Shown one piece after another: positions 23,046-60,232 of a DNA stretch of 64,000 nucleotides. The DNA is taken from positions 93,791,416-93,855,415 of the forward strand of contig CM057009.1 in assembly GCA_029891345.1 (NCBI GenBank), given 5' to 3'. The notes under the pieces were generated by a model, which worked only from the letters and a program-made list of their open reading frames with translations, was not told the DNA's origin and searched no databases. Numbering within the stretch: position 1 is the first letter of the stretch; every line of letters starts with the position of its first letter. Made by a program: the position numbers and the translations under genes. Source of the DNA: Dryococelus australis (taxonomy: Eukaryota; Arthropoda; Insecta; Phasmatodea; Phasmatidae).

Positions 23046-25982
23046 GAGCATGTAAACAACTGTCAATCCGAATGACACGACCACCTTTTCATATCTGAGA
23101 CCGGTTTAGGCAGTGCAACATTGTTCTGCAGCAGCGCCACGAGTCATTCAGTTACATAGTGCTATCCCATGACTTTTGTCATGTCATTGTATAACATATT
23201 ACACATTTTCAACTTACACCATTACAAGAAAAATAGTACCCAAGATTATCCACTTTCACTTGATACAAAACTTAACACTGATAGCCATTAACTTTTAAAT
23301 TATGGTTCGCAGTGTTCTTCCATATTAGCTGAAATTCTTTTTCATCAAATTGTATTATATTGTATTATCCTCGCAGGTCCTCAGCCCAGTAGACATTATC
23401 TAGTTTAACTACAATGCGATATGGACCATCCCATTTGTCAGCAAGACCAGCACCAAACTAGTTGCTGGCCTTGCTGAGGGGATGACTTCTGAGTAGGACG
23501 GCTTCGCCGACATTGAATTCTCACATCCCTGTCTATAGCTGAGTGTATTTCCTTTGTATATAGGCATACTGAGCTTTCTGGGTGTTAGTGACCCGGGTCA
23601 GCATAGCTAGTTGGATGTCCTCTGGTTGTAGCATATCCGTGGGTTCACTCTCTTACTGCCAGTTGCCTGGTTGGCGCAGGGGTTGGCCCAGAAGAAGCTG
23701 GCTCAGACTGGTGTTTACCGCTTCATTGGTACGGCGACGAAGGGCAAACAAGATGGTAGGGATATGTTTATCTTAATGTTGGTGGTCATCACCTACACTG
23801 AGTTGGAGACACTTCTTAATCTTCTGGTTCCTCTGCTCAGTGGGGTTAGCCTAAGGGTGTTGTGGTGAGATAGTTCATGTTTCTATACCCCCATCCTTGG
23901 CATGCTGACTGCCATTGGTGACAGGTAAACTGTGTACCATTGTCAGACAGAATGGCTTGAGGGTATCCCCAATGTGCAAATACCTTGGCTTCCATTTTTC
24001 GAATGATAGGGGTGGTTTCCTGTCTGGGTAGCGGAAATGCCTCTACCCACCGGGAAAACTGGTCTGTTACTACCAATAAATACCAGTTCTCCTTTGTACT
24101 TCAAGGATATGGTCCCATTAGATTGGCAGCTAAATGGGTCCATGCTGTCTTAGGTCTTCTCTGTTTAGTTATAGGTGGAGGAACAGGGTATGCCTTGCCG
24201 CAGCAGCATGTGACACAGTTGGTCACGTTCTGCTGGGCATTGTGGCTTATTCCATCCTAGCTATAATGGGTTCCAATATCCAATAAAGTTTCTCTGGTAC
24301 CCGGGTGCCCTGCTTGGGGATGCTCATGGTGATGATGGCAGATGTCTGTTCGTAACTGCTGTGGTACCCATATCTTCCACCTTACTGTGGGTTGTCTGCT
24401 ACAAGTCCACACGCGTTCATCCCTTAACTCAAACCTTTAAGACTGTTCCTGCAGGAGGCGGTGGATTTCAGGGTCTTCCTGTTGGCTTAGCCTTATTTAA
24501 TAGCATGTTATTTGTAACTGGAGTAGACAAATTTGTTCCTCTGTACTTCGTTCTGGTGAAGGAGGATGGGATGTGTTCTCCCCTTCTTCCTTGGCTTTTT
24601 TGTCCTCTTCCAATGTTGTAAACTGAGATAGGTCCAGAACTTGTTTTAGTTCGTTAAATTCCAGTTCTCCTAATTCAGGGTTGATCCTGGTTGGGTAAAA
24701 CGGCTTCGGGATTGTGTTCCCAATTCACCATTACCTGGTCCTTATCTCCCAAGTAAACTCGTTGTTACCCATGGTCAATGACACATTGCTTTTGTCGAAG
24801 CTATGGGCAACCAAGTATTACGGCTTCTGTCAGCACAGGTGAAACCAAGAACTCGGCTGGGTTGGAGTGTCTGTATAAATTTACAGTTAGGGTGATTAGG
24901 CCGTCAACCTGAAAGGTGGCATCTGGTTGTGCCATTTATACAATGTTTGACTGTGGTCAAATGGCAGCTTTTTGTTGTGGACTCAGTAAATCGCTTCTGA
25001 TAAAATTCCCAGTTGCGGCCGAATCTAATACGGCTAGAACCCTGCTTCTGTTAATTTCCACTTCAATGTAGGGGGCGATAGGAGAAGTAGATTCCTCGTT
25101 TAAGCGCTGGATGCTTGGCCCTTGTCCGCTGGTGGCGGCCTGCTTCGCACCCCGGCTTCGGCGTTTCCCACCTTAGGAGTTGAGGGCATTGTAACTGTAA
25201 TGTTGGGTTGGTTCGATGCTTCTGTCCGGTTGGTTTGCTTATTAGTTGGGATCCCTTGGCTGGTAGGTTTGCATGGGCAGTCCTCATTCCAATGGCTATT
25301 GGGACAGAACCAGCACTTTGGTACGAATGAAAGGCGTGGCATAGGAACAGGTGAGTTCCTGGGTGCCTCTGCTGACGGAGTTCGTGACTCAGGTGTTTTT
25401 TTCATTGTAGGCTTGTCGAATGCAGTCTATGTGGCGAAGTTCTGTTCTGCCTCTCTGGCACGCTCTACCAGTTCATCATTTGTTGACGGTTTGGACATAA
25501 GTAATGTATTCCACAACCTGCGTAATAGCAGTTGACTAATTGAATGGACGGAAGTCACCTCATTTACTCCTGGAAATACTCGTAGAAATATCTGTTCTTT
25601 CCTACAGATGAATATTTCCGCTTCGTCGTCGGGTACCTGGTTCTGACTGTAGAGTTGTTTCGTTAATCGGGCGAGGACCTCTTCGCCAGTAAACTCAGTC
25701 GCTGATCAACTTTGAAACAGTTTCCATTCGGTTATAAACCCACTGTAGCGATTCCACCATCCAGCGCTAGACCTTTAAGGTGAGTTTGGGCATTGCTCAC
25801 CCATTGTTTTATCGGGAGGTAGGTTTCCTTGAATTTTTTTTTTGCATGCAGTGATAAACGTAACCGGGTCCTCAAGTGGTTGCCCCGCAAAGTCGGTGAT
25901 CTGTATATCACAATAGTTTCTTTTTGCCGGGTATCATGGAGCTGAATCAACAATCATAACCAGTGGGAACGGGTTGTGTAGG

Positions 25983-26167
25983 TTTGCCTACACCTCTCAC
26001 ACTGGCATGCTATACCTGATCTGGTGACCCTTTCGTTGGCCAGCCTATACTGGCATGGTGATATGGCTCGCTACAGGTGGTGCAGCGTATCTTGTTTATT
26101 CCATTTCCTAGACATGTGATTTGGTCAAGTGGTCGATAGTGTCCAGCAGGCTTTGCACCTGTACTCC
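25983..26167 (-). other. PHD-like zinc-binding cluster upstream of gag (fossil)
   Basis: The minus strand shows CKAC, then INKIRCTTC, SEPYHH and finally QCERCR. This is the spacing style of a C4HC3 PHD finger. The + strand sister copy shows the matching pieces CKHC, INRSRCTTC, ESYHHLC and QCERCR at about 54847-55020. Conservation of these residues between two otherwise decayed copies is the main evidence that it was a real domain. Confidence 0.55.
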
Positions 26168-26514
26168 AGTCCCTCCGTATTTGTAGCTTCGTCCATCCAT
26201 CTTAGGCATAGATGATGGAATGAGTTACCACAGTGGTGCATTCAGTGCTAAACGTGGCATTTCCCTGACATTTGATATGGCTACATTTATTATCGGATAT
26301 ATCTGCCATGTTATCATTTGCCTCTTTGGCGGTACTAACACTGGTGTCAGACATATTGGTGCTAATGGATGTAACAAAGTGTTTAGATGACTCCCTGAAG
26401 TCCATTTCAGTCCCCGGTTGACTTTTAGGCCTCTGAGCCATTCTAGTCTGGTTCTGGTGTTTACCGCTTACAGATAATTATGCTGACGCCCCAGGTTGGG
26501 CACCAGAAAATCAC

Positions 26515-28166
26515 TTTACGCATGCTGGGTTAAGGACTGAATGTACTGTCAATGTGGTTTTAGTAGCATTCGACCATTCACGCTGGTAGTTCACTAATTA
26601 TTTGTTTATTTTACATTTAGTGGTCGCAACTTTAGCTGGTCGTGTCGGTTGCAACTAGGAATGGAATTTTCCACTACCAGGATTGCAACTGGTTTGTTCG
26701 TAGTGCAAGTTGCTTTGGTACCACCTGTCTCGCCAGGGATTGTTTGAGTTGGTGGTGACGGAGCTGCTGCAGACTGGCCAGAACTGGTATAGCTGGTGGC
26801 CAGTTGTTGGACATTGATACTGTGCCGACTAACACAGTACCATCGCCTCCACTCGGTTTGACTCCGGACTTCAGAATCTGTGGTTGGTTGTTCCATACTT
26901 TACCTCGGTATCCTGTATAAGACCTTTAACCACAGGGTGATATTCCCTAGCAATGTGCGTGTGCTCCGGGAAATGAACGTATTTTAAAATACAGGAAAGG
27001 AAGACCTGTCCAGGAGAAGGGTGAGAAACGCTCGATCCCACTCAGCTTGCCTACTTGGAGTAGGCAGGGCTGGTACATACTCTTGTTAGACGGCCTTATA
27101 AGCCGCCTTTTTCTCTGTCCTCTTTGAACCTTGACTCCCACCTAAAGGCATGGAGGTTGGATTGACACTTGAGATATCTACTGATTGTTGTCGACGCAAA
27201 ATAGTTCCCTATCTTAGTGTACTTCCAATAGTAGTTGATGGTACAAGTTCGGTGCTTTAATTAACCCCTCGCCATCGCACACAGACCTAGACTGTTGAAC
27301 CGTGTGGGCTGCCTCCCTATTACTTTTGGGTGTAGTTTGCAACAGAGTTATGCAGTCAGTCTCGAGCAAATATCCTGACTGGTACCAAAAGTTTCGGTGA
27401 CCTGCTCCTAAACTACCCAAGGTAACTAGTGGCATTGACAACTATGATAGCAACTCAGTCGGAGCTAAAATATTCAAGGGGAGTCTAGAAGAAACAATTT
27501 AAAATGGGGGCCACTACTTTAAGATCAGTGGGTGTAGTTGCATCTACCAGCCCCGACTGCTGTTCCAGAAGGAGCAGCAGTAAAAGGCGTGGTGTCATGA
27601 AGATGAAGAAAAGCTTCTGGTTGATGGTGGTGGTTGTCAACAATGAAGCCTCTGGTAGCTACAGATGTCTGCAGCAGGAGCCTCTGGTAACTTCAATGGT
27701 AGCAGCCTCTGGTGGCTGCCGAAGACAGTTGAAGGAACGAGCTACTGGAGAAGGAAATAACTCGCGAGTCCGGTACTGCACTGACTTTTATGGACTGAAA
27801 GACAGGTGCAGCGCCGGGCCACGGTGTGAAGTGTGATGTCATCTAATTATGTCCCTCTCTTGCGAGGCCAGGGTGGAGGTAGCTATCATCTGTCCGGCTC
27901 TTGGCTTCGTGCATAATCGGCGGCACTCAGTTTCGCCCAGAGATGTTTGACAGCTTGTTGGCTCTCAGCACGCGCGGGGGTTGCTCACTGGCTTGCGCAA
28001 ACCTTATTTTGCACATGTTTGGAAGGAATCGCCGTTCAGGGTTGTAGCGATCCAAGACACTAGTGTAATAAGTTGCTGGATTTGACTCTCCCTCAGGTGA
28101 AGTATAAATAATTGAGTCAGATGATTCGTAGTTATTGTAGTATTATATAGGAAAGTGGCATGCATA
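26515..28166 (-). repeat. 5' LTR of the RT-less Gypsy fossil, copy 1
   Basis: It lies immediately upstream of the primer-site stretch and shares segments with the LTRs at 52445 and 58595: GCGCAAGCCA, CGTGCTGAGAGCC, and a CCAGAAGCT-containing region. Antisense reading gives a Ser-rich chance ORF at 27504-27836. The right end is placed by similarity to the start of the other LTRs and may be off by tens of bases. Confidence 0.6.
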
Positions 28167-28735
28167 AGACTGTCTTATTCATTAGGCCAGTGCTGACAAA
28201 GAAAAAAAGGGGCCTCTGACCTGTACCATCAAAAAAGTTACTTTTAGTACTAAGATCCAAGGACACCATACAAACTGGAGCAACATCTTACCCTTTCATA
28301 TCTGTATTAGTAAGGCCCATCACACAACAAACCCTCACTAATTTTATGACTAGTAAATGTTATACCTTCCTAATTTTATTCTTTATTACTCAGATTTTTA
28401 AACACTGAATTTAAAAAATAACTAAAAGATTATGTTCATTCATTACCTTTCTTAATGTAACTTACATTTTCAACTGGTTTACAAATTGTCATTTCATTTG
28501 AAAATTTAATTAAATTCTATATGATTCAGTATAGCTATATTCATTAAAATCTATCAGCATCGATAATACTTTTCAAAACTCCCAGCAGAGTTCCAAAATT
28601 ATTTGTTTTTAATTGAAATTTCAACTTTTTACTTTTTAATATCTGAAACACAAACAAACTTTTTAATATCCATTGCTCTTATATAGCTTTTCCTGTTCAG
28701 TACTCTGCTTGAAGTACAAGAACTAAATTCTAATA
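28167..28735. other. AT-rich intron DNA
   Basis: Apart from the segment at 28180-28250 that resembles 21340-21420, nothing was recognised. Confidence 0.5.
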
Positions 28736-28820
28736 CAGTAGAAACCCGGAATACCACGCCCCGTTATACTGCGGATTCTGTTATACCGCGGCGCAATTTA
28801 TGTACCCCGGCCTGAATAAA
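28736..28820 (+). repeat. pogo/Tigger-like terminal fragment
   Basis: TA followed by CAGTAGAAACCCGG and a further CGTTATAC/GTTATACCGCGG pattern resembles the terminal inverted repeat of pogo-group transposons, which begin CAGT and insert at TA. No opposite end or transposase was found nearby, so it may be a solitary end or part of a MITE. Confidence 0.4.
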
Positions 28821-28854
28821 TAGATAAGTGGAAAGCGTGCAGTCAGGTAGGCAT

Positions 28855-29375
28855 GTGGTCTGTCGGCAGGTGTTTATGGAGAGAACAGGGGATTACATTA
28901 AATCCAGCTAATCTCATGGAAAATACCATTTTGGAGTTGTCAGCATCTTGGCCTGGGGCAGCATCATGTTGGGCTCATGTAAACTTCTCCATATGTTAGG
29001 TCATGGCTCTGTAACTGATCAGGTGTATGGTAGATTGTTTTAGGGTTGCAATAGTTGCACATTTCTTTTTTTATAGATGACAATGCCTGTCCATGTCATT
29101 CTGCATTGGTGGGTGACTACCTGGAAAACAAGAACATTGCCTGTTTGGATTGGCGGGCAAGATCCACCAATCTCAGTCCTAGAAAGCATGCTTGGGGATC
29201 ACTCTGGTGTCATATTTTGAAGTGTTCAGTGCCTCTACATACCATCCAGGAGCTTCTGGTGTCTGTGGTACTGGAATGGCTCTTCATACTCTTAAGAACT
29301 GCTCAACAATCTTGTTTTCAACATAAGAGTCTGTTGTACTGCATGTATTACTGTCCAGGATGACTGCATGTTGTA
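28855..29375 (+). pseudogene. Tc1-like transposase remnant
   Basis: The + strand reads a middle part with SILAWGSIMLGSCKLL (compare the VMVWG core of Tc1 enzymes) and an open C-terminal stretch at 29055-29363 with FIDDNACPCHSALVGDYLE, ACLDWRARSTNLSP and KHAWGSLW. These correspond to the D-N-A-x-x-H and D-W-P-A-x-S-P-D-x-N-P-x-E-H-x-W motifs of Tc1 transposases. The third acidic residue and its proline context are changed, and the frame is not continuous, so it is dead. It belongs to a different subfamily from the element at 21711-23191. No terminal repeats were found. Confidence 0.82.
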
Positions 29376-29605
29376 TTGACTCTTTACATTACCCTGCATA
29401 AGTGATGTGACATAGGTCATGTTAAATGTCATGTTGTCTATGGTAGATTGTCAGTGTGGTACATTGGGTGTTTGGTATGTTGAGTGCCCTGTAGCTGGTA
29501 GTCGGAACATGGAAGCCTCGTATGAACTCTAGAATAGTCATTGTGTTCAAGCCAAATTAAGTGGTTATTAAAGGATACAACATTGATGATGAGAATGGGA
29601 TGCAT

Positions 29606-29606
<1 letters not shown>

Positions 29607-29659
<53 letters not shown>
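29607..29659 (+). repeat. 53-base poly-T tract
   Basis: An uninterrupted run of T between the primer-site region and gag of the split Gypsy fossil. It may be a recent microsatellite expansion, the reverse-strand A tail of an inserted retroposon, or in part an assembly artefact. Confidence 0.95.
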
Positions 29660-30598
29660 CAAGAGAGATGATACATTTTTTTAATATCAAAAATGTCAGG
29701 GTAATTGGTTTGAGAAATTCACACTGCGAGAAGATGCATGGGACTGGTATTTAGAAAGACTTAAGCAATTTGTTATTGCAAATGGCACGGGGGACAAAGG
29801 CAAGGATCAATAAAGGCATTGTAGTAAACTTATCTCGTCCGTGGGAAATAAACCTGCAAAATACTACACAATATAAGTGAACTTAAAAAACCAATGACTG
29901 CACGGAATTACTGAATTTGCTAACCTGACATTCTGACATTTTCTTCTAGGCCATCTGTTATAGCAGAGCATCATAATTTTCAAAGAAGGGTGCAGCAGAA
30001 CCATGAAAGTATCCTGATTTGGTTCTAAACTTATGTAAACCAACACACTTTTGCAATTTTGGAACTTCCCTAGAAATGACACTACTAAAGCAGTTTGTGA
30101 TAGAGCTGAATATAAAAACTTTACACAAAAAATTTATCTGGAGTCTGATGACTTTACTTTTAAAAAAGTGGTTAGTGTACCACTTTCATATGAAGCAGCC
30201 ACTGTCAGTGCATCCTTTGATATGGGAAGTCCAAGAGCCTACCTCCCATATCTCCGACATTTGTCAAAGACCAATCTGTTAACATAGTGATGATGTGTCT
30301 GCAGAAAGACAGTGTGTAACACCAAAAGTTTCTATCAGTTGGTGTACATGTGTTATGGGTACCCCAAGTCATTTTGTGCAGAATTACAAGATTTGTAAGC
30401 ATAAGCGCAACATCTGCAAGCAACTGGGACATATTAAGAGAATGTATCCAAATATTTGGACAAGTGGCATAAAAGGGTCGGCCCATCACAACTTATAGTC
30501 GGTAATCCAGAGAACCTGGGTTCAGAAAAGTTGGAAAAGAATTTGCTTCAGTGTGTGATGTGCAGCTTGACATGTAAATTGACAGTGGGGCTTCCATA

Positions 30599-32278
30599 TG
30601 ATGTGGTGCAAGGTTCAGGGTGTTGCAATTGGTGCATGATTTTCCAGGCTGAGGTGAAAACTATGAATATTGCCCGGCGCCATAACTCAGTGGAGTTAGT
30701 GAGATGGGTCATGTGGCCAACGGCCCTGTGGGACCCTGGAGTCCTGCGTTAAGTCTGTTGATTGGCTGATTTGACACTTACCCGTAACTATGTTCACGTA
30801 GTTTTGCACCTATTAGCAAGATTGTAGTCCACCTTGCACACCATACTTACACTGAAGTTACTCTGCTATAGGGCGTAGTACTCCTAGTATTCCCGAAGAG
30901 AATTATACATAAAACACTGTATTGAATTCTGCATTAGGGCACAGTACCCAAAATATCCTTGAGGATAAAGACTCAATTAAAGTTTTTACTTTGGTTAAGA
31001 CATTTTATTGGCCTGTTGTGATTACATAACAATGACACTATTACAATGAAATAATGCGGGCTCGGTACTTGGTCTGCTGGTAACCTATGTGGTGTAAAAG
31101 GCTTGAGCCATGAACTTACATATAGCATGTAGCGCGTTATGTCATGGTTATGAACACAGGAAGGCCAATGGTCTACCCTCGGCACGTGAAGACAAAGGTT
31201 CCTGTTATTAAATCACTATTGGTATACTACATGGTTACAGCCAAACATTGAATGTGCCGAGGGGGAATCGCATGAGCGAACTCGCATGCTGCCAGCTGGG
31301 TCGAGTGCTAAGGTCAGACTAATTTGATGGCGTTAACCTGGGCGGAAGGTGATAGAGGCCGATGTCAGAAATCACTTTGAAATATTAATATTTACACAAA
31401 TATTGACATACGAAAAATAATGGTGATTTTAAACACTTCTACTTATTGTATTAATACATATTGGTGACTTTCTCGTGTGTCATAAGGTGTTAATTCTGCT
31501 TGTGAATGTGACATCACATGATATGTTACTGCACTTAAAATATGTTATTACGTGAAATGAGACCGATGTAGGCAGTTTCCTTAGAAATAAAAACACAATA
31601 ACCATTTTACAATATGTACATAATTACAATCACAGAAATAGCTGGAATAACTGTACGTTGTTCAGCTATTTTGGTTTCCGATTGAAACTTTCAAAGTAAA
31701 TTGTAGCTTCCGGCGAACTTCCAAAGTAAATTTTGGTTTTCGGCATCTCATGACGTTGGATGAGTCCATCCCTGAAAGGGGCATAAGTAGCTACGCTCGA
31801 TTACACTTATTACAAAAGAGATTCACTGCATGGTTTATTTTACTTGAAATAAAGACTTGTAGCACTTGGGGGAAAATATCCCCTATTGATTTAATGCCTC
31901 TGGGGCCATATAGCACTGTGAAATAGGCCAGCAGGCCAGTCAACGTTACACACCAGAGGGCCATTGGGCGTCGTAGCGCTAACTGATCCGATGTTCCCTC
32001 CAATTGCCGGAGCGCCTGACGGCTGTAGCTTTCATTGGGACACTGTTCTGGACCACATACTAATTTATTCCAAGAGTTACACTTTCGAACAAATAAAGGA
32101 AGACAGCCACTTGAGTCATGTAGTACCTGTCGGCAAGGCGGTGTAAATAGCCGTTCTCGTCGACCTACACTATTGTATTCGCGGTCATTTGTGTCAACCT
32201 GGTGTCCGCTAAATGGAACAGATGACCACGGAGCTGCAAGCAGTCGTGAGAGCACTCGTGGATGCCTGGTTCACATCA
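30599..32278 (-). repeat. Left (3') LTR of the 12.8 kb element
   Basis: Direct repeat of 41778-43415 over its whole length. Shared blocks include TGATTTGACACTTACCCGTA and CATTTTATTGGCCTGTTG. It ends CATCA next to the polypurine tract. Its antisense carries a 154-codon open stretch (31791-32255) of no recognised family; the other LTR has only a shorter open stretch there, in another frame. Confidence 0.92.
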
Positions 32279-33333: not shown

Positions 33334-36159
33334 TCGGCGTGGAACGTGTGTTGTAGATGGAACCCATTTTCCAATGTAATGGGCTTGGTTCTCGCGAGTG
33401 GCCTGCAGTTCTTTCTCCCTGCATTGCCGTCGTGCTGCGCCGTCCTCTGGTGCGCTTGTATTCTCGTTGCGCCGTCTGGTGAACTCGCTGGGTAGCGGTT
33501 ACTCCCACCCTAACCAAATGGAGGCAGGTGACTTTCCAGTTGCCAAGTTCGCTCACCTTCTTATTGTGAATAGGATTGCTGGCAGATGTTTGACCCTACT
33601 AGTGTGGTTCTTACCAACCTGCAAGCGCAACTGTGTCTTCAGCTCTTGGTTGCGCCTTCCAGTCTGGTTGGCCTGCAGGTGGTATACAGCAGTTGTCTGA
33701 TGTACTATTCCTCACCGGGTGTATAAATCATACCATTGCCGTCCCGTGATTTGCATCTCGTTATCCGTTAGCAATGCGCAGGCTTACTCCAGCAGGGGTA
33801 TAATTCGGTCTCCAGCACATACACAATGGTGCTGCACATGCGCTGGAGACTGGGTAAGCTTCCGTCCATCTGGAGGAGTCACTTACCACTAATATGAAGC
33901 ATTTGCCAATTGGTGTTCAGGAGTAGGGGGCCATTAGGTCTAGTGATGCTATTTTAAAGGGCTCACGAGGTGTTCACAGCTGCTGTTGCACTTCCCCATT
34001 TGCTCTCCAACTCTTAAATTGGTTGCAGCTTATACTTTCCCTGACATCTTTGTGCACATCCCTCATGACTCCTGGCCTGTGGAGATTTTACTGTATATTC
34101 TTGGTGGTTTGCTCTGCCCCAGGGTGACCTGCAAATTGGCTGCTGTGAGCATGACACAATACCGGTTCTCTTGCACCCTTCGGTACGTAGAGGCGCCATG
34201 GTGTGTCCGGCTGTAACAGTCATGTTTCGATGCGTGCACCTTCCATGCACAACCACTTTGTGCTACCTTGTGCAATCTCCTCTACACGCCACTGCATGTC
34301 TGCACATTGTTGTTGGATGTTCTAAACGAGTGCTTGGAGCTCATCTAACCGGAGTTCTGTTTCGGTGGGGACCTCAATGTGACTAGAATAAGCTATGCCC
34401 TTGCCAGGTGTTCGGCAGATGGCTGCAGTAGGAGGCAGTAGGTCATCCCACTGATCCACTGCTATTACTTCGCACTACAGTTTTTCTGCGAGCTGATTTA
34501 AGGTGATTGTTATTCTTGCTATTTTATGTTGTTAGTTTCATGATTTGTTGCAAGACAATTTGTTGAGGTGTTTGTGTTACGTTCTGCCTGATCTGTTGAG
34601 GTGTGTGTGTTACGTGCATACTAGTAGTTTGGTGGTAGTCAGCGTCCAGTTCGCCTACCCCGGCAGGTTGTTTCCCTTCGGTGAGGTGTTGTTTTCTGAG
34701 TTTGCTTCCTCCTTGAATTTAAGTTTTGGTGTACTCGCTGTGCCAGTGGTACTGCTGTCTTTCACAGTAACGGCATGCAGAGGGAGGGGGGACCCTACTA
34801 GTGCATCCCTTTGCAGTGGCCTCTCCCGTCACGGTTGGGCCCGTGGGTTTAGGCGCTGTGACACGGCTGTGCTCTGCATCTCCGCGTGTTATGGGGTGGG
34901 CTGGCTCAGTGTTGCGATTGACAGCTGATGTCTGTGGTGCCATGTCCCTTTGTGCACTTTCCTGCTCCCTGTTTCCCTGATCTAGGAGTGCAGCTTAGCA
35001 CATAAAAGCTTCAATACTAGAGAGAATGAAGGGTACCAAAGTGAGTTGGTTTTCTCGTTGCATTGTAGATGCTACAACTTCCAAAATTTCTGTTTTGCGC
35101 ATTTGCAGGTGAAAGTGTCTTATGAGATTAATTTTCCATTTAGCAAATGTGGTTAACGTCTCTCTGTGCCACTGCACTTCTAAGGCTCCGTGCCTGAAGG
35201 GATGAATATGTGTTTATGAACCTGCTCTGGAATGCACTTAAAAACTCTCCCCATTGCATCCCATAATGACTTATGGTGCTCCACCACATATGTGCTTCTC
35301 CCTTTAACTGGCACCCAACACAATTGGGCCAATCTGGCTCACACACTTCATACCTTTTTAATCATCCTTGGCAGTCGCTCAGGAACTCCTGCGGATCCTC
35401 ATTCATATGCCCAGCGAAAGTGGGCAGCAACTGGAATTGAGTTGGTGTTGTGCCCAATTCCGCTGTTGGTGCTGCGGGTGTTCCAGTTGTGACTGACACG
35501 TGTGGTTGTGGCCACATGAAGCCAGTCGGTGTCATTGGTGCTGGTTGCGTTGGTATGCCCGTGGAGTAGGCCAACTGGCTGATGTAGTAGTTCATTCTGT
35601 TGTTGTTGACAGCAGGTGGGTGTGGCACTGTCAACAGTAGCACAGGGATGACCTGTCCGCACCGGAATTTCCCAGCAGTTGTATTTACCACGTTTCTTTT
35701 GGTCGCACATTCCCAGTGTATAATTTTCCCGCACTGGTCACCACACCCAAGGTTGTTAGAGAGGAGGAGTTTGGCCCGGTTTGCGGAGTTAAAGTGGCTG
35801 GAGGAGCGACCTCACCCCGTGATGTAGCTGGGAGCAGTCCCTCCCGCATTCCACAGTCTTACCACTGTAGTATTCTGCATCAAACTATTTTACAAGCAAA
35901 TGTACCCAACATTTTAGGATATAAATTACAGGAAATTTTCGTGAACACTGGCAATTTACTATGTAAAAACGTAACTGCATGTTTACTGGTATTTATCTTA
36001 TAAAGATATACATTTCTTGTAACATTAGAATTTAAATTACACAAGTGTTTTTCCCTTGTGTTTATCACCACAGTGTTTTAGATCATGTGTATTGAAGCGA
36101 GGAATGTTTGTTACTTAAATTTTTGTTATGTAAGGCCGTGTTCCAATTCACACTTCTTT

Positions 36160-40560: not shown

Positions 40561-40593
40561 TTGCTGTACCTTCGCACCATCAGAGGTACTGCA

Positions 40594-41777: not shown

Positions 41778-43415
41778 TGATGTGGTGCAAGGTCTAGGAT
41801 GTTGAAATTGGTCCCCACTTCACTTGATGTACCAGGTTGAGGCGAAAACAGTGAATATTGCCCAGCGCCAAAACACAGTAGAGTTAGTGAGATGGGTCGT
41901 GCGACCGACAGCCCTGTTGGACCTTGGAGTTCTGCATCGAGTTGATTGATTGGCTGATTTGACACTTACCCGTAACTATGTTCACGTAGTTTTACACTTA
42001 GTAGCAAGGTTGTAGACCACCTTGCACACTGTACTTACACTGAATTTACTCTTCTGTAGGGCGCAGTACCCGTAATATTCGTGAAGAGAATTATACATAA
42101 AACACTGAATTGAATTCTGCATTAGGGCACAGTGTCCATAATACCCTTGAAAATAAAGATGCAATAAATGTCCTTACTTTGGTTGAGACATTTTATTGGC
42201 CTGTTGCAATTACATAATGGTTACTCTGTTATAATGAATGAATGAATGAATGAATGAATGAATGCGGGCTTGGCATACTGTCTACTTGTAATATATGCTG
42301 CACAAAAGGCTTGGGCCATGAACTTACATGCAGCGCGTAGCATGTTAAGTCCTGGTTATGACCACAGGAAGGCAGACGTTCTATCCCTCGGCATGTGAAG
42401 ACAAAGGTTCCTGTTATTAAATCACTATTGGTATACTATATGGTTGCAGCCAAATTATGAAGAATGTGCCGAGGGTGACTCACGTGACGAAACTCCAATG
42501 CTGCCAGCTGAGTCATTACTGAGGTCAGACTAATTTGATGGCGTCGGCCTGGGCAGAGGCTGCCGTTAGAAATCGCTTGAAAAAACTAATATTTACATAC
42601 GAAAGATAATGGGGATTCTATATACTGCGACTTATTGAATTGATACATATTTGTGTTGTCGCAGGGTATGTCACTTCACTTAAAATGTGATATTCCTTTA
42701 AATGAGGCCGGTGTAGGCAGTTTGCTGGGAAATAAAAACACAACCACCCTTTTACAATGTGTACATAATTACAACCACTGAAATAGCTGGAATAACTGTA
42801 AGTTGTTCTGCTATTTTGGCTCTCGGTTGAAATTTTCAAAGTGAATTGTAGCTTCCGGCGAACTTCCAAAGTAAATGTTTGGTTCCTGTGTTTTATGCTG
42901 TTTGGATGAGTCCATCCTTGGAAATACGTATGGCTAGCCACGCTCTATTTCACTTATTACAAAAGAAATTCACTGCATGGATTGCTTTACTTGAAATAGA
43001 GTCTGGTAGCACTAGGGGAAAAATATTCCCTATTGATTTAATGCCCTTGGGGCTATATAGCACTGTGAAATAGGCCAGCAGACCAGTCGACATCATACAC
43101 ACTGGTGTTGCGGTGGGAACTGATCTGACGTTCTCTCCAATTGCCGAGGTGTTTGGTAGCTGTGGCTTTCAGAGGGACGCCATTTTGGACTGTTTGCACA
43201 TTTATTTCAAGAGTTATCGTTTGGAGCAAATAAAGCAAGACATCCACTTGAGTCACGTAGTACCTGTCGGCGAGGCAGTGTAAATTGCCATTCTCGTTGA
43301 CCTGCACTATTGCATTAGCAGCCGTTCGTGTCGACCCGGTGTCCGCTAACTGGAACAGATGACTGTGGATGTGCAAACGGTCGTGAGAGCACTCGTGGAC
43401 GCCGGTTTCACAACA
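41778..43415 (-). repeat. Right (5') LTR of the 12.8 kb element
   Basis: Partner of 30599-32278. It starts TGATGTGGTGC and ends CAACA, and is followed directly by the target duplication CATA and the continuation of the invaded Gypsy protease. It contains an (AATG)8 microsatellite at 42233-42264 that the other LTR lacks. Confidence 0.92.
42233..42264 (+). repeat. (AATG)8 microsatellite
   Basis: Eight perfect AATG units inside the right LTR of the 12.8 kb element. The matching place in the left LTR has only a non-repeated sequence, so the expansion happened after insertion. Confidence 0.97.
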
Positions 43416-51154: not shown

Positions 51155-51320
51155 AGGCACAGCAGGAACACAACTGATTCAGAAATGCAGCTGCAGCGCT
51201 CACTACATGTTCAGTACATGTTATCAGGAACACCTGTCAACATGTTGTCACCTCTCAATACACCGTACATATCTCCAATGCCGTCTCCACCAATCAACCA
51301 CAGTCCTGCATCAATACCAG
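51155..51320 (+). CDS. SIK3: SIK3-like kinase gene, internal exon 3 of 3 in this window
   Basis: The acceptor ATTGTTGCAG follows a T-rich tract, and the donor is CCAG|GTTGGG. The exon is 166 bases, enters in phase 0 (fitting the exit phase of the exon at 48165) and leaves in phase 1. It reads RHSRNTTDSEMQLQRSLH, then a Pro/Ser-rich segment (NMLSPLNTPYISPMPSPP). Such SP/TP-rich disordered sequence is usual in the long C-terminal half of SIK2/SIK3. The direct continuation from the LQHEYQQLQ helix supports its place. The following exon must begin in phase 1; none was recognised before the window ends, implying another intron over 12 kb. Confidence 0.75.
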
Positions 51321-52444
51321 GTTGGGTATAATTTTAATATATGTTAATTTTCTCGCTTCACTGCCCCAAATGCCTTGCTTTGTATTGTATGCAATTTTTG
51401 CACATAAAATAAGCTCAAAATCAATGCTACTGATCTTTGATATTTTTTCTAAATTGTCACACTTAAGTTTTGAAGCAAAATTCTTGTAATTTTTAATTAA
51501 ATTAGCTTTTTTAATAGTACTTACTGTTAAGATACATGTAAATGAGTGTAATGTGTGTGTGCTGCCAAGAAAAATGTAAAAGTACATCCAAATAGAATTG
51601 ATGTGAAACTCAGCTAATCAAGAGTTTTGAAAATAATTATCAAATACACAACCATTTTTGTATCCCTTTTATGTTTCTGCATTTGTTGTGATAGCTAATC
51701 TTTTTTTATTTAAAATATGTTAAAAATGGGTATGTATGTGAGCTGTTTAAGTTTATGTTTTTCTGCTTTGAATATTGAGGTATTTTAATAATTTTCATAC
51801 AAGAAATTCACCGTTAAACAATTTTATTCTTCTATACAAAAATTATTACTTCAAGATGTGACCACTGTGATTATATATTACCACAGAAAAAAATTTAACG
51901 TGACAAACATTATATTAGTAAATTTATGACTTGAATAGAATACACAATTGTGCCCTTAAAATTCTTCGGAAATTTTGGAGAATAAATAAATTGTTGTTTT
52001 TGAATCACATGGCGGCAGACTGCTCAGAGGTCTGAGCGGCATGGTGGCAAAATTTGAGAAAAGCAAGTTGTGTTACAAAAACCAGCATAGAAAATTCTGA
52101 AATGGCAATACATTAATACAAGACACTTAAGGATACAATTATATGACAGATTAAACATTATAAAAATACATTAGTTGGCAATTAGGGTACAGAATTGCGT
52201 CACTGGAAAGAAATTAGGAGGTGTCTTTCTCAGTACCTCATGACAATTTACACAAGTACTTATTACTTAATGAATAGACAAAACAGAAAACAATATAAAT
52301 TACAACACAAAATGTGGCACCAGGACTCTTGACGTCACTCGGTTGATCTGAGTAGAAAAATTGAAGAAGGGGTGTAGGTAGCCAACATAACTGGGTAATA
52401 GATCTTGGTTTACTATCTATCACTATCCAAATAAGCATAGCCTT
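51321..52444 (+). other. Intron DNA, nothing recognised
   Basis: AT-rich sequence between the third exon and the left LTR of the Gypsy fossil. Only short chance ORFs are present. Confidence 0.5.
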
Positions 52445-54479
52445 TGACGTGTACCGTTTATACTACTATTAATTACGATTGCGACTCATCTCACTTCAAA
52501 CCAAATATACCTACTTATACCTACAAGTGAATTCAACCCTGCGCCAACCCGTACACGAATGTAGTGACCTGCCACAATCCTGGAGGGCAGCCTGACACGT
52601 GGATACGAGGGGTTGCGCAAGCCAGCAGTGCTTCACCCCCCACACCCACCCCTCTCCCGCGCTGAGAGCCTAGAAGCCTTCAGCCGCCTCAGGCATGGCC
52701 AAGTGCCACTGAAAATACGCGCATGCAGAGAAATGACTAGAGGGTTGCAACACTCACTCCAGCCTCGCACCAGAGGGACATCACGTACCCCCCTCCTGCT
52801 GCCACTACGATAACTGCAAACCTTACTATATAAGTCCATGCACGGTGGACCACGCCAGTTGTTCCATCCTGTTCTTCGAGCTCGCTCCACCACTTCCAGT
52901 GCTGGGGCCTCCGACTACTGCATTATCTTCAGCAGTCACCAGTGGCTGCCAGCCTTGCTGTCACCATTAGAGCTCTGCAGCACCCGTGACCAGACGCTCT
53001 AGTGACGTCAATCGACAACAGTTACCAGAAGCTCTTCATTGGTAACTAGAGACATTCCACACACCAACCTTCACCGTCTCTTATAGACACCCCTCTTTCT
53101 AGATAGTTCGTTTTTACATTAATTAATCTTCAACAGTTTTTATTAACTTTTACCAAATTAGCCAAGGACCAGGTCGCCTACACCTGGCTAATGTAGGTTA
53201 TTTTCAGCCACCCGTCTGCTTGGCAGGAGTTAGCACGAGTCACTGTGTTGCTAAGCAAATAATAAACACAGATTTGTTTCAACTGCGAGTCTTATTCCTA
53301 GAGTACTTCCAAAGTCAGCTGCTAGGAGAACATCAAGTCGTGCACTACCGACTGGGGATGCAGTATTTTACTACAAACTAGCTACGGCTGGAGACACCCC
53401 TTCAGGAGGCTCCAGATCGATACACACCCATTAGACGGCCATCTAGTATATTCCCACCTTGCATCCAGGTGCTGTAGGTATATCATTGAAGAGCCCCTAC
53501 CACTAGGAATACCTTTTCAACCAAGGAGAGACAGTACACCAGAGTTGTATCCTCACCGAGCACTGAGGTGCTGGCAGGGATATTTGCTCAGTTGCTACGG
53601 CCAGGCTTTGGCTTTGAACACATACCCAATAATAGCTGTGGTAGCCCCCACACCTCCAATGCCGCTGATCTGCCCGCTAGAGTAGGGGATCTTCTGAGGC
53701 ACCGGGGCTCATGCTACCAAGTCGTTACTGGGCTGGAACTATTCTAGGGTTCCTCTTCGTGTCCGTGGTGCTCGAACTGCCATTCTCAGTAGCCATTTCT
53801 GCTCTATATCATATAAGGTGAGACACGTTACAAGGAGGGAGGAGTAAAGGATTGCTCATCTTGCTGCCAAGCAGCGGACTGGTTTAGCTCCCCTACAGCG
53901 GAACGACAGGCGGAACGAGACTGTGTTACCTTTCTTAGGTTATCGAATAGACCTTTATCACAAGTGTGTATGTTCTATTGTCTCTCCCCCTACTTGTACA
54001 CACTCTGACTACCACCCTATCCTGAGTGGTGTGGTGAACGAGACAGAGGGACGTCTTGGAATCTCCAACGCCACCTTTTGGAGTTCAGTTGCAGCTAAGT
54101 GGAACTGTAAATTTTGGGTCATTGAGCCCAGTGTCCTCATTACAGCCTTGACCCACTAGGCCAACATCAACCGTCTGCAGCCAGCCACCACTCATCATCA
54201 TCATCATCATCATCAAGACATCAGTAAGTTGAGTGACCCTAACAACTCCCGCCAGGTGTTAATGGCAACTAAATACATGGTCAGTAAGAGGGTATACCAG
54301 CATAAGGAATTAGTTAACCGAAACCTATAGAACTTTGTTCCTCTGCGCAAGGCTACGTGCCCAATCGCGATATCCAGCCGGGAGTGACTCCTGCCGAAAA
54401 CCTTAGACGCTCCTCTGACCTAAGCACAACTAAAGCCACGAAGACCGTGTCCTAGCCTTAGTTAACCAGGCACGAGTCA
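52445..54479 (+). repeat. 5' LTR of RT-less Gypsy copy 2
   Basis: It starts TGACGTGTACC and ends GAGTCA. The first about 600 bases and last about 100 bases align with 58595-60232 (shared ATCCTGGAGGGCAGCCTGAC and GTGTCCTAGCCTTAGTTAAC). The central parts of the two LTRs differ. A (CAT)n run lies at 54192-54215. Confidence 0.8.
54192..54215 (+). repeat. (CAT)n microsatellite
   Basis: About eight CAT units in a row within the 5' LTR. This part of the LTR has no counterpart in the 3' LTR. Confidence 0.9.
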
Positions 54480-54846
54480 ACTGATTTTTTGGTGCCCAAC
54501 ATGGGGCATCAAGACTAAGTAACTGTTAGTTAAGCGAAAGGCCGAACTATTTCACCTGACCCAGAGACCTAATAGTCAACCGGGATAACCCAGCGAACTT
54601 CGGGGAGTCCAATAAAAACCCAGTAGCGCCCAAAAGCCATAGACATGTCAGCTTCCGAGATAAATGCTGCCTCGGTCATAAATCATGACTCGTGAACGAG
54701 ACATACAAGATCCAAAATGTAGCCATACCAAATTTCCAGGTATCGGCTCATTACAGATAGAGTGAACCTATTGCTTGAAGACCTACCGCCATGTATGCTT
54801 AGGCTGGCCAGATGATGTCTGGGATACAGAAGGCCTCGAATACAGA

Positions 54847-55025
54847 TGCAAACACTGCCGTCAACACCCAACCAGTTTTTGTAATGAAATACCTGTCCCG
54901 GCCGAGGCATAAACCGTAGCCGATGCACCACGTGCTGTGAATCCTACCATCACCTGTGCATAGGATGTCACGACAAGTGCGTCTCTATGCCAGGGATGGC
55001 ATACCAGTGTGAGAGATGTAGACGG
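54847..55025 (+). other. PHD-like zinc-binding cluster upstream of gag (fossil)
   Basis: The sequence shows CKHC, then INRSRCTTC, ESYHHLC and, after about 17 residues, QCERCR. The order CxxC, CxxC, YHxxC, CxxC is that of C4HC3 fingers. The same residues appear at 25983-26167 in the sister copy. Confidence 0.55.
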
Positions 55026-57795
55026 AAACACGTCTCCTACTCCCAACGATCAAAGCCATAGAGGATTTGTATCCAACCTGGGACAGCATCCGGCCACCCG
55101 GCAACTGGAAGAGGCTATGATATTCAGATCACCGGTTTTGCAGGCTGACCACACAAGGACCCGGTGGCGTTCACACAAGAGTGTGAATAAGCATTCCGGG
55201 ATACCGATTTACCAACGAAGCAATGGTAGACAGGGCCCAGTTACCCCTGAAAGGCTTAGCGTTAACATGAAGGGAGAGATACGGTGAGTTCCTCATGGAT
55301 TGGAAGCAGTTCTGCAACCGCATTGCATCTGAGTTCACTGACGAGGAGGTGTCAGCGCAATTGACGACTCAGTTTTACAGCCAGACCCAGGTACCAGAAG
55401 ATGAGGCCGAAAGAAGTAGATGTTTCAACGTATGTTCCCTGGGGTTCCGGAAGCAATATCCGTGCGATCGATTAGCAGGATTCTACTGCCCAGCCTGAGG
55501 AATGTCCTCCTCATGGCTAAACCCACAACTATAGATGAATTAGTTGAACGTGCATGGGAAGCCGAGCAGAATTTCGCGGCGCAGGTAAGTCTGGAAAAAC
55601 ATCAACCGGTAAAAACCCCGGAGCCATGAGCCCCACCTGTCGAATCACCCAGGAATGTGCCCGCTCTCCCGTCACACATGACATTCGTACCAAAGTGTTG
55701 GTTCTGTCCGTAGAGCCCCTGGAGTAAAGATTGCCCTCGCAAACCAGCTGGCCCAGCGATTCCCCCCGGGCAAGTCTGATTGAACACTGAAGCCTGCAAC
55801 GTCGAGGCCCACAGAGAAACCGTCTTCCATTACTAATGCGGGAAACGTCACCGCCGGGCTGCAAAGCGGACCGCCACCACCGGGCTACACCGCCCCATCA
55901 TCCAGGGCTTAAGTTGGGAATCGTCAATCCCCACAGCCCCACATATAGAGGTAAAAATTAACGGCAGGAGGGAACTCGCCCAACTAGACTCCGCAGCGAC
56001 TGGTAACTTATCAGAAGCAATCTACTAACTCTGAGGCTGTTATCGAAAATACGACCCCAAACCAAGACAGTCCAAATGGTGCTGCCCGATGCAACCCTGT
56101 GTGTAGACAGTCGAATTACCTTAACGGTAAATCTACATCACATCTCGACATCCACTGAGTTCATAGTATCCCCCTCCCTGTCAGAAGCAATGATACTGTG
56201 ATGCCAGTGGCTCCATACAAACCAGTGCATAGTTGACCATGGGCGGATCCCTGTGCAGTGGGAAAAACGAACAGAATGATAATAAACTGGAACCATAGCC
56301 CAGACAACATTGTACCCACGCCCATCAATCATATGCAACTAAACAAGGAAATCAAAGTTAACAAACTCAAGTCAGTACCGAATGACCTACCAGACACCAT
56401 GCCTCGTCTCCCGACACTGGAGGACAAAGCCGAGGAGGAAGAAGACAAAGATACACCCCCCCCCCCCTCCTCAGATCAAAAGAAGTCTGGAAGAACGAAT
56501 CCGCCTCCTCCAGTTACAAATCACCAGTCATCAGGTCACATTCAGCCAGCAGGAGGACGCCGACGTATGCTGTCTGCTACGAGAACAGCCACAGCGCTTC
56601 GAAGCAAGGGATGATATTGTGTGGACGTGGAGCGGCCAACCCAATGCACGTTGGAAAATCTCGGTTCCACAACAACAGTGAGCCGACATCTGCCACCACG
56701 ACCACACTCAAGCTGGACACCCGAGCACTCGAGAAACCCTACTGGACATCGGGATCTGATATAGCTGGGACGGGATGAGCAGTGACGTCCAACAGTACAT
56801 CAGCAACTATGTAACGTGCTGCCGCGGCAAAGCCTACCTTGTTCTCCCTCCTACCGCATGACTTAGGAGACCCAAGACGGTATGGACACACATAGCCACT
56901 GATCTGATGGAACCATACCCACGTAGCACAGAGGGGAACCGCTACCTACTGGTAATTACCAACCAATTCTCCGGGTGGGTGGAGGCCTTCCCTCTACCTA
57001 GCCAGGAAACCATCCCAATTGTGCAAAAAATGGAGGCAGAAATATTTGCATGCTGGGGATGCCCGAAGACTAAACTGACTGACAATGGCACTCAGTTCAT
57101 GAGTCACCAATGGCAGTCAGCATGCCAGGGATGGGGAGTCAAAATGTGGACTACTCCTTCGTACCACCCTCAGGCCAACCCCACTGAACAAAGGAACCAA
57201 AAAAATCAATAAGTCCCTTCATATCAGTGTGGGTAACGACCACCTTCACTGGGATAAGCATATCCCAATAATTTTGTTTTCCCTACGTCGTCAAACGAAC
57301 GAAGCGGTGGACACCAGCCCAAGTACACTCCTCCTGGGACAGACCCTACGCCAACCAGGCAGCTGGCAGTGGGAAAGTGAACGAACCAATATGCCTCATC
57401 CAGAAGCCACACTAGCACGTACTACCACTGCCCAGAAGGCCCAGGATGAGTATATCAAAACAAAGTACCCATAACCGAAGATAGGGGTACGCGAATTTAA
57501 CCTCGGTGAAGCCGTATTGCTCAGAACTCATCCCCTCAGCAGGCCAGTAATCAATTCAGCTTTGGCCTAGCTGACAAATGGGACGGACCTTATCGTATTG
57601 TCTGTAAACGAGACGTCTACTGGGCCGAAGATATATTAGGACAGATCCGGAAGGCCGCCCGAGGCCAAATAAGACCATATCCAGGGATATGCCACCAATT
57701 GAACACAACGATGCCGTAGGGGAAAGCCGGGCGACTTCGACAGTGAGGACGAACCACCACCCCAAAAGGCAGCTCCAGAACTTGAACCATGACTA

Positions 57796-58212
57796 ATGAA
57801 GAGATCTGAGGAGAGACCCATCGAAGCCCAACGGGCACCCAGCTATGTGCCACCATGGAGGCCGGATGTAGAAACACGCCAAGGCGCAGTTACCCTCAGA
57901 TCACTGCCCTCAATGCCATGCAGCTACGCTGACAAAGTCGCAGCCCAATGCTACAGAGCGATCCCGAGCTGCTACAAAGTGTCATGGCGTAGCTTACAAG
58001 ACCGAGAAAGCCGCCAGGCACCCCGCCGATCGAGTCGCATCAGCGAAAGGTTAGAAGCACCATCGGTGAGGGTGGTAGAAGCAACCAGAGCGCCTACCCC
58101 TCCACCTAGTACAACTCCACAGCCTGAGATCAAGGTCGTTCCAACTTTTCCGAAGGTGATTTTGAGCTTCAACGAGGAAGTGCTACCCGCCACTAGACCA
58201 CCGGACAACTAA
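57796..58212 (+). other. Disordered integrase tail of RT-less Gypsy copy 2 (fossil)
   Basis: A 138-codon open stretch rich in Pro, Arg, Ser and Glu, including RRSSRISERLEAP and TPPPSTTPQPE. It follows the integrase C-terminal side and precedes the polypurine tract, the position of a pol tail. Confidence 0.55.
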
Positions 58213-58594
58213 CAGATAGTGAGCTCGCAACCCATTAACGCCATTGAGCACGAGAGACACGTTCTGCCTCTTGCTCAATTGAACACCGATACAGAAGGCA
58301 TCGAGACCGTTGATGCCTCTTACTACCCAACACTTGGTGCAACTCCCACAGTTGAAGTCGAGCCCCGTCTCCCTCGCACTGCCTCACCATAGGATGACCC
58401 CAGAGCACACAGTGAGCAACGATAGAGTGGGCAAGCAGCCCAACACTAAGGGTCCTGCCTAACCTGACTTCAAAAGTTTTTTCTTCTTCTCTTTAAGACT
58501 ACTCCCAAGAACTTCATGATTGGGGGGGGGGGGGTATGCCCTTCTCCGTCGAACCTTCACTATGAGTCTTCATCGCAACAAGGGGGGGGCGAAT

Positions 58595-60232
58595 TGACAT
58601 GTGCTGCTTATACTACCATTAATAAAGATTGCAACTCATCTCACTTCAAACCAAGTATACCTACTTCTAACCACTAGTGAGTCGAGCCCCTCGCCAACCC
58701 GTTCATGGATATTGCAGCTTGCTACAATCCTGGAGGGCAGCCTGACACGTGGATACAAGGGGTTGGGCAAGCCTGTGGCGCGCCACCCCCGCTCCCCCTC
58801 ACTGAGAGCCTACAAAGCCGTCAGCCGCCTCAGGGCATGGCCGAGCACCACCAAAGATAGGCAAAGGCCGAGAGATGACTAGAGGTTTGCTACCCCCACT
58901 CTACCCTCGTACCAGAGGGACATCACATGCACCTCTCCCCCCCCACCCCCCAACGCAACCGCTGCGACACCTGCAACCCTGACTATATAAAAGTCAGTGC
59001 GCTGCAGACCACGCCAGTTGTTCCATCCAGTTCTTCGAGCTCGCACCACCACTTCCAGTTCTGGGGCCTCCGACTACTGCGTTATCTTCAGCAGCCCAAC
59101 CGTCTTCAGCAGCCATCAGAGGCTGCCAGCCTTGCCGTCACCGTTAGAGCTCTGCAGCACCCGCGACCAGACTGTGACATCAATCGACAAAATTTACCTG
59201 AAAACCAGCAAACATGTTGGCTAATATAAACATTTGATTTACCAACTTAACAAACAAAATTACTCTTTTTGGGTATGTTAAAGGGATCTCATCAAGAGGA
59301 AAAGAGGGGGAATGAATTTAACTCTTCTTGCATGTCTTTTGTCAGTCTAATGTTATTTATATATATTGCTGTATAATATGTTGGACTTTTCCCTAAGGAA
59401 ACTCCATAAATTTCACTATTAATTTGAATAATAGGATTTTTTAAGGGTACACTTTTTGAGTATCTAGTGTGATGTCCTTCACGTGTATTAATATCACTCC
59501 GTATATTTAATAGCATTAAATAAATGTTCAAATATTCCCCCCTCAATACAACCCCCTTTTTAATATAAAGGAAAGGAATATAAAAAATGCAATCAAACGC
59601 AGCAGTACATTTCACTAATCTCCTTTACCTACAACACCTTTATTTACAAAATAAATGTTGTTTAACACCCGGAAGTGGCAGCTTGGTGGGGCCTGGAAGT
59701 ACATCCAGTGATAAGGTCCCAGCAATTAGCGACAGCGAATAGAGATATGCAGAACTGCCATGGAGTTTCCCATTTGCATGTTAAATGCAGAGCGAGTAGG
59801 TTAGAGTAGGTGCGGGCTGATCCTGGACTTTCTGTTTTCGGTTTTTTTGTGTTCTTGTTTTGAAGTATGTGTCATGTTGTATTAATAGTTTAATTCCTTT
59901 TTACATATTATATAAATTATTAACAGTATTGATTGTGTTTTTGCAGATTTCATCCTGACATGAATCGGAGGCAAATTCATTCTTCTGGTTATTACCCGAG
60001 GAAGGTTTATCGTAATATCGTGTCTTTTACTAAGGATGTCAATAAAGATTGTAGGTCTTGGACAGTTAAGATCGCTGATATAGAAGAGATTTATATTTTG
60101 TTGTCTTTTTTGTACCGTTTTGATTTTCAGGGAGTAACTGCTAAAGCCGAAAACACTAGACGCGCCTCTGACCTACACGCAACTAAAGCCACGAAAACCG
60201 TGTCCTAGCCTTAGTTAACTGGACACGCGTCA
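58595..60232 (+). repeat. 3' LTR of RT-less Gypsy copy 2
   Basis: It starts TGACATGTGC after the polypurine tract and ends CGCGTCA. Both ends match the 5' LTR, but the central stretch of about 0.9 kb (about 59190-60128) does not and is strongly AT-rich in part. It carries a 107-codon minus-strand open stretch at 59292-59615 and possible inserted DNA of unknown origin. Confidence 0.75.

What the first reader, a model, noticed from the sequence alone, without database searches (positions are those of the whole stretch)
23365..60232. Two copies of one Gypsy family show gag, protease and integrase but no reverse transcriptase part
Copies at 23365-28166 (minus) and 52445-60232 (plus) share the same part order: long LTR, TGGTGCCCAAC primer site, Cys/His cluster, gag, protease side, linker, integrase. 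The linker leads directly into the integrase zinc region in both. Because two separate insertions share the layout, it looks inherited by the family rather than a private loss. Established: LTR elements without RT depend on enzymes supplied in trans; keeping integrase while lacking RT is an uncommon combination as far as I know. Inference: a non-autonomous lineage mobilised by an RT-bearing relative.
Basis: partly seen in the sequence, partly recalled or inferred. Interest (0 to 1): 0.72.

Follow-up and report, generated by a model that had tools for sequence, protein, structure and literature searches.

The report
RT-less Gypsy elements, lost twice
Two old jumping-gene copies in an animal-like genome really lack reverse transcriptase, but most sampled relatives still have it; two sister lineages seem each to have cut it out cleanly, and mosaic copies suggest that the RT-less form was copied by enzymes borrowed from complete relatives.

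Summary
In detail: both copies have a primer site, Cys/His finger, gag side, protease side and integrase, and neither matches RT or RNase H of its own family. The family does not lack RT: 17 of the 20 fetched relatives carry RT and/or RNase H pieces, between protease and integrase where both sides remain. The copies belong to two subfamilies (65% identical) with different in-frame excisions of RT-RNase H. Copy B's junction is spanned by all 39 other scored matches and is the same in 22 sequenced ones. Copy A's junction is spanned by 3 of 39; 36 stop there, and two sequenced copies share it. Copy B is a mosaic: protease-junction of RT-less type, integrase of RT-bearing type; so are 5 of 22 RT-less copies tested, with crossovers at about three places. 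Co-packaging of both RNAs, with RT supplied in trans, explains this best; gene conversion is the main rival. It works like mouse IAP IΔ1, cattle D-type ERVK and wheat Cereba/Quinta; keeping integrase while losing only RT-RNase H is the unusual part.

The parts
52445..54479 (+). copy B 5' LTR (TGACG...GAGTCA)
   Evidence: direct repeat with 58595-60232
54490..54507 (+). copy B primer-binding site, 2 mismatches to TGGCGCCCAACGTGGGGC (complement of tRNA-Lys(CTT) 3' end, identity recalled); exact in relative L019
54888..55058 (+). copy B PHD-like Cys/His finger piece (weak)
   Evidence: translation; Pfam PHD 0.12, under cut-off
55271..55626 (+). copy B gag pieces (weak)
   Evidence: 55271-55495 Retrotrans_gag 0.043, under cut-off; 55420-55626 no match
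55837..56198 (+). copy B protease pieces (motif LDSAATGN), RT-less type by tree
   Evidence: no Pfam match
55840..56600 (+). RT-less-type module inside an RT-bearing-type backbone in copy B; limits approximate
56380..56385 (+). copy B excision junction (GAATGA, 6-bp microhomology GAAYGA between the start of RT and the end of RNase H); same join in 22 other sequenced copies
56680..57209 (+). copy B integrase zinc region and core, RT-bearing type
   Evidence: rve 6.8e-13; H2C2 0.00024
57793..58209 (+). copy B tail reading frame after integrase, no Pfam match
58394..58398 (+). private deletion point: about 2.2 kb of tail present in relatives is missing
58595..60232 (+). copy B 3' LTR; its middle (59203-60129) does not match the middle of the 5' LTR
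26488..26505 (-). copy A primer-binding site, 2 mismatches
26128..26241 (-). copy A PHD-like Cys/His piece (weak); 25957-26070 also Cys-rich
   Evidence: PHD 0.002, Zn_ribbon_4 0.0014, both under cut-off
25430..25705 (-). copy A gag-side piece, by DNA match to copy B only
   Evidence: no gag match in Pfam
24804..25172 (-). copy A protease pieces (motif LDSAATGNFI)
   Evidence: Asp_protease_2 0.19, not significant
24631..24635 (-). copy A excision junction (a different one), shared with L057 and L058
24260..24436 (-). copy A integrase zinc region (H2C2 2.9e-6)
23849..24256 (-). copy A integrase core pieces (rve 2.9e-14 in 23849-24100); the copy ends at about 23365, just after the integrase

Best explanation
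The two copies are decayed members of two subfamilies (A, B) of one Ty3/Gypsy-type LTR retrotransposon family whose ordinary members have PR-RT-RNase H-IN. In each subfamily a separate deletion removed RT and RNase H almost exactly and in frame, leaving a Gag-PR-IN reading frame. Each RT-less form then multiplied (39 further places span the B junction; at least 2, perhaps 3, further places have the A junction). Lacking RT, their RNAs must have been reverse transcribed by RT-bearing relatives in shared particles. The trace is recombination: in five of 22 B copies tested, the window's among them, the RT-less module is joined to RT-bearing-type integrase. Shown: shared junctions, frame, RT in subfamily B relatives, mosaics. 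Inferred: RT in subfamily A (from spacing), co-packaging, RT in trans, use of the element's own Gag, PR and IN.
For: RT and RNase H domains between PR and IN in relatives (ten pieces: RVT_1 to 4e-26, RT_RNaseH to 3.8e-31; 17 of the 20 loci fetched, which are the 20 best matches to copy B's integrase). The B-junction query is spanned by all 40 scored matches, the window included; the same join in 22 sequenced copies, with a 9-bp deletion seen in the seven RT-less rows aligned with RT-bearing ones. In subfamily A 36 of 39 other places stop at the junction and 3 span it; in the 10 of the 36 also found with the integrase query the gap to the integrase is 1463-1620 bp against 293 in copy A (read by hand, uncorrected for up to 17 query bases); L057 and L058 share copy A's junction. 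Protease tree: all 23 B RT-less rows one clade, 100/100. Integrase tree: 17 form one clade, 100/99, but winB, L029, L032, L038, L051 lie among RT-bearing rows; well-supported branches force at least 3 changes; one clade rejected, AU p 1.03e-5. Diagnostic sites in winB: 55 RT-less to 11 RT-bearing left of 56690, 1 to 27 right of it. Frames open across the junction in L041 and L050 and winA. Fixed differences lie mostly at third codon positions, PR 6/3/26 and IN 0/1/12.
Against: Gene conversion between inserted copies could also make mosaics. Third-position bias on the stems may predate RT loss; within RT-less copies it is seen in IN (non-CpG shared variants 4/2/12) and the linker (3/2/10) but not in PR (5/1/4), and such variants may have come in by recombination. 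Singletons in PR are themselves somewhat third-position-heavy, 112/92/149. In 54044-54443 copy B is less like RT-bearing copies (66-78%) than like RT-less L029 (81-85%), so two crossovers may be too simple. Placement of winB, L029 and L038 within particular RT-bearing groups has only 93-95 bootstrap. RT in subfamily A is inferred from spacing; one of the 36 A places has the right side only 182 bp away, so not all 36 need carry RT. Only the 40 best matches are scored per search, so true proportions are unknown. One RT-less copy (C11, L037 with L063) has no gag where expected.
Confidence: 0.82

Rival explanations
1. Mosaics arose by gene conversion between copies already in the chromosomes, not by template switching in particles.
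For: All copies look old (integrase tree end branches about 0.1) and many lie in one genome; L052 carries a short RT-bearing-type patch at 56358-56500.
Against: Eleven other places match copy B's gag-protease combination over nearly the whole 801-bp query at 77-84%, while copies known to be non-mosaic there are at 72-75%, as expected of a recombinant that multiplied; this is modest, since only four of the eleven are known to be RT-less and their sequences upstream were not all read. The RT-bearing-type part runs from about 56600 to at least 57167 in the mosaics, and to 58394 in copy B.
Confidence: 0.2
2. One ancestral RT loss shared by subfamilies A and B, with junctions later altered.
For: Same two domains lost, both in frame, junctions only about 15 bp apart on the right side.
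Against: Copy A lacks the 9-bp deletion of the B RT-less rows and joins different codons; the A protease rows are apart from B with 100/100; RT-bearing members are in both subfamilies, in A by spacing only.
Confidence: 0.12
3. Private decay: each window copy lost RT after insertion.
For: Copy B does have one private deletion (tail); copy A is truncated.
Against: Same join in 22 other B copies and in 2 A copies.
Confidence: 0.02
4. Gmr1-like element (integrase before RT, as recalled), with RT lost from the end.
For: PR is followed directly by IN in the window copies.
Against: In relatives that keep both sides, RT and RNase H lie between PR and IN; eight pieces after IN, seven of relatives and one of copy B, have no Pfam match.
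Confidence: 0.01

Closest known systems
Mouse IAP IΔ1 (PMC6466679, passages read)
   Same: An internal deletion gives a fusion reading frame; moves with proteins in trans; common among copies
   Different: IAP is a retrovirus-like ERV whose 1.9-kb deletion removes part of gag and pol; here gag, PR and IN are kept and only RT-RNase H is cut, in a Gypsy-type element
Cattle ERVK[2-1-LTR] C and D types (PMC10924933, passages read)
   Same: Defective and competent forms side by side, with recombination between them read as co-packaging
   Different: D type lacks all intact genes; activity there is observed, here only fossils
Wheat RLG_Cereba / RLG_Quinta (PMC11302176, passages read)
   Same: Autonomous and non-autonomous pair with same primer site and LTR ends; recombination among lineages
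   [quoted passage not shown] here IN is kept
Sorghum CR2-Sb-B and noaCR5 (PMC4079200, passages read)
   Same: Nonautonomous subfamilies; recombinants between subfamilies of one family
   Different: In CR2-Sb-B the RT and integrase domains are both absent or truncated
TR-GAG elements (PMC8704663, passages read)
   Same: Non-autonomous LTR elements that keep a gene and can move
   Different: Only gag is kept

Membership tests
Ty3/Gypsy LTR retrotransposon | LTR pair, PBS, gag, PR, IN | tested here: met
   copy B; IN strong, gag under cut-off (0.043), PR by motif only; copy A has no second LTR
Ty3/Gypsy LTR retrotransposon | order PR-RT-RNase H-IN in complete relatives | tested here: met
   for subfamily B; subfamily A by spacing only
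Ty3/Gypsy LTR retrotransposon | RT phylogeny within the Ty3/Gypsy group | not tested
   no RT tree with named references was made
Non-autonomous partner of an autonomous LTR element | same PBS and LTR ends as the RT-bearing partner | tested here: met
   PBS and bases before it alike in RT-less L029, L032 and RT-bearing L019, L026; copy B's LTR 66-92% identical to RT-bearing ones in 200-bp windows
Non-autonomous partner of an autonomous LTR element | lacks a needed enzyme in many copies by descent | tested here: met
Non-autonomous partner of an autonomous LTR element | mobilised in trans | not testable with these tools
   only inferred from mosaics
TRIM / LARD | no coding capacity (recalled) | tested here: not met
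   integrase and gag-protease side present
TR-GAG | single reading frame for gag only | tested here: not met
   integrase kept
Gmr1-like Gypsy | integrase before RT (recalled) | tested here: not met
   RT lies between PR and IN in relatives

The most novel reading that the evidence does not exclude
Clean, in-frame removal of RT-RNase H is a repeatable strategy in this family: it happened at least twice, each time leaving a Gag-PR-IN frame that kept working (third-position bias, seen also in integrase among RT-less copies), so these elements were semi-autonomous partners that brought their own particle, protease and integrase and borrowed only RT, and the RT-less module was passed between backbones by recombination like a cassette.
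Probability: 0.3. Interest if true: 0.7.

Novelty: new variant of a known kind. Interest (0 to 1): 0.5.

Why it matters
The non-autonomous LTR elements described in the passages read lose RT and integrase together or lose nearly all genes, apart from IAP IΔ1, which has a gag-pol fusion. A lineage that keeps gag, protease and integrase and loses only RT-RNase H, apparently twice, lets one ask which proteins must act in cis and which can be borrowed. The mosaics would be a fossil record of RT-less and RT-bearing RNAs meeting in one particle.

Tried and rejected
Gmr1-like order was considered and rejected. A private loss was rejected for RT and accepted for the tail. Looking for env or another gene after the integrase gave no Pfam match in 8 pieces, seven of relatives and one of copy B. 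A selection test within RT-less copies gave no signal in PR. A literature search for PHD fingers in gag gave nothing specific; the one PHD mention in PMC3286476 is a host gene. The gag of the C11 copy (L037) was not found; two others (L052, L055) have it. Papers: search listings (one search found no paper). Passages only were seen in PMC6466679, PMC10924933, PMC4079200, PMC11302176, PMC8704663, PMC3286476. The IAP cis-effect paper was not held. No claim is made that an RT-less, IN-bearing element is absent from print; the searches nearest to that question were 32, 54 and 61.
Full report
The two copies were checked first. Copy B (plus) has LTRs at 52445-54479 and 58595-60232 and a primer-binding site at 54490. 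Copy A (minus) has a primer site at 26488-26505 and runs to about 23365, where it ends just after the integrase; it has no second LTR. Their interiors match over 2.6 kb at 65%. Piece by piece, the integrase core is clear in both (6.8e-13 and 2.9e-14), H2C2 is over the cut-off in A and under it in B, and the Cys/His finger (PHD 0.002 in A and 0.12 in B), gag (0.043 in B, none in A) and protease (0.19 in A, none in B) are weak; the protease call rests on the LDSAATGN motif. No RT was found in 63 stop-free pieces. tblastn with RT and RNase H pieces of relatives finds nothing in either copy at E 1e-3, while the same queries find RT and/or RNase H in 17 of 20 relatives (16 with both, L030 with RNase H only); five of the 20 supplied the queries. 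In L029, one of the other three, an RT match of 37-54% lies outside the element.

A search with copy B's integrase DNA gave 40 scored places of 2982 candidates; the 20 best of the 39 others were fetched. Most have about 1.35 kb more between protease and integrase, and that stretch encodes RVT_1 and RT_RNaseH in the ordinary Gypsy order. L029 and L032 lack it with both sides present; L034 is truncated and tells nothing.

The RT-less state is nevertheless shared. A 381-bp query across copy B's junction was spanned by all 40 scored matches (698 candidates), copy B included. The 22 other copies that were aligned (L029, L032, L037-L056) have the same join, point changes apart; L032 has a further 10-bp gap just left of it. 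In the seven RT-less rows aligned with RT-bearing ones a 9-bp deletion upstream is also shared. The join lies at a 6-bp microhomology GAAYGA between the codons just before RT and those that end RNase H, and keeps the frame: L041 and L050 still have reading frames of 190 and 195 aa that cross it.

Copy A's junction is another one. It lacks the 9-bp deletion and joins other codons. A query across it matched 39 other scored places; 36 stop at the junction and 3 span it. For 10 of the 36 the integrase was also found, 1463-1620 bp further on against 293 in copy A, so they have room for RT-RNase H; this was read off the two tables by hand and RT itself was not sequenced there. One of the 36 has its right side only 182 bp away. 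L057 and L058 share copy A's junction. In the protease tree A and B are apart with 100/100. Two independent, in-frame excisions are therefore the best reading.

The strongest evidence for mobilisation in trans is recombination. In the protease region all 23 B-type RT-less rows form one clade (100/100; 37 rows, 3 short rows and 8 loci without a match left out). In the integrase region (46 rows, L047 and L058 left out as short; L034 was labelled RT-bearing without evidence of RT, L059-L062 by spacing) 17 RT-less rows form a clade (100/99), but winB, L029, L032, L038 and L051 lie among RT-bearing rows; well-supported branches force at least 3 changes, and the exact groups of winB, L029 and L038 have 93-95 bootstrap. 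Holding all 22 together is rejected (AU p 1.03e-5). At 94 diagnostic sites winB has 55 RT-less and 11 RT-bearing states left of 56690 and 1 and 27 right of it; L032 changes at the junction, L051 at about 56500, and winB, L029 and L038 between 56500 and 56690. In 200-bp windows copy B is mostly 76-92% like its nearest RT-bearing copies (L017-L023) from 52444 to about 55700 and 75-90% from 56644 on, but only 64-79% like RT-bearing copies in 55844-56643, where RT-less L029 is at 83-89%; a second dip lies at 54044-54443. Two RT-less copies, at least one with integrase of the RT-less clade and both in that clade (L052, L055), carry leader, finger and gag at 67-68% to copy B and 84% to each other, so the RT-less lineage has its own gag. 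Eleven other places match copy B's gag-protease stretch over nearly all 801 bp at 77-84%, which suggests, modestly, that a recombinant itself multiplied. Template switching between co-packaged RNAs explains this; gene conversion in the chromosomes is the main rival.

Did the RT-less elements use their own proteins? Fixed differences between RT-less and RT-bearing rows are mostly third-position: PR 6/3/26 (23 against 5 rows; 16 RT-bearing loci were offered) and IN 0/1/12 (18 against 16 rows), while singletons are 112/92/149 in PR and 113/127/112 in IN. This shows selection on the stems, which may predate RT loss. Among RT-less copies alone, shared non-CpG variants (3 or more of 18 rows) are 4/2/12 in IN, 3/2/10 in the linker and 5/1/4 in PR: suggestive for IN and linker, nothing for PR, and recombination may have brought such variants in.

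Compared with what is known, from passages read: IAP IΔ1 has a gag-pol fusion and moves with proteins in trans (PMC6466679); cattle ERVK D types recombine with competent C types, read there as co-packaging (PMC10924933); wheat Quinta keeps gag, lacks RT and IN, and is paired with Cereba by shared primer site and LTR ends (PMC11302176); in sorghum CR2-Sb-B RT and integrase are absent or truncated (PMC4079200). The present elements work like these and are a variant: integrase kept, RT-RNase H alone removed, apparently twice. The identity of the primer tRNA as tRNA-Lys(CTT) is recalled, not tested; the primer-site sequence is exact in L019.

Noticed in passing
window 26128-26241 (-) and 54888-55058 (+): A PHD-finger-like Cys/His cluster sits between primer site and gag in this Gypsy family (Pfam PHD 0.002 and 0.12, under cut-off).
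   Followed up: partly
window 58394-58398; L018, L022, L024, L026: Relatives carry about 2.2 kb after the integrase, including repeated segments, without a Pfam match in the seven pieces of relatives tried; the join in copy B is private.
   Followed up: partly
window 30599-32278 and 41778-43415: A 1.7-kb direct repeat, 78% identical, 11 kb apart; one piece of the first copy has no Pfam match.
   Followed up: no
window 6678-6947 and 7375-7875 (-): Fragments of another, distant Gypsy element: integrase and RNase H matches at 23-28% identity.
   Followed up: no
window 33643-33970 (-): A further distant Gypsy integrase fragment (32-44% identity).
   Followed up: no
window 21657-22145 (-): Transposase fragment (DDE_3, 2.4e-9), Tc1/mariner type by recall.
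   Followed up: no
L063 with L037 (C11): An RT-less copy without gag where expected, beside which an LTR and tail of the family stand in inverted orientation.
   Followed up: partly
L052 (56358-56500 in window terms): A short RT-bearing-type patch inside an otherwise RT-less-type copy, possibly a double crossover or gene conversion.
   Followed up: no
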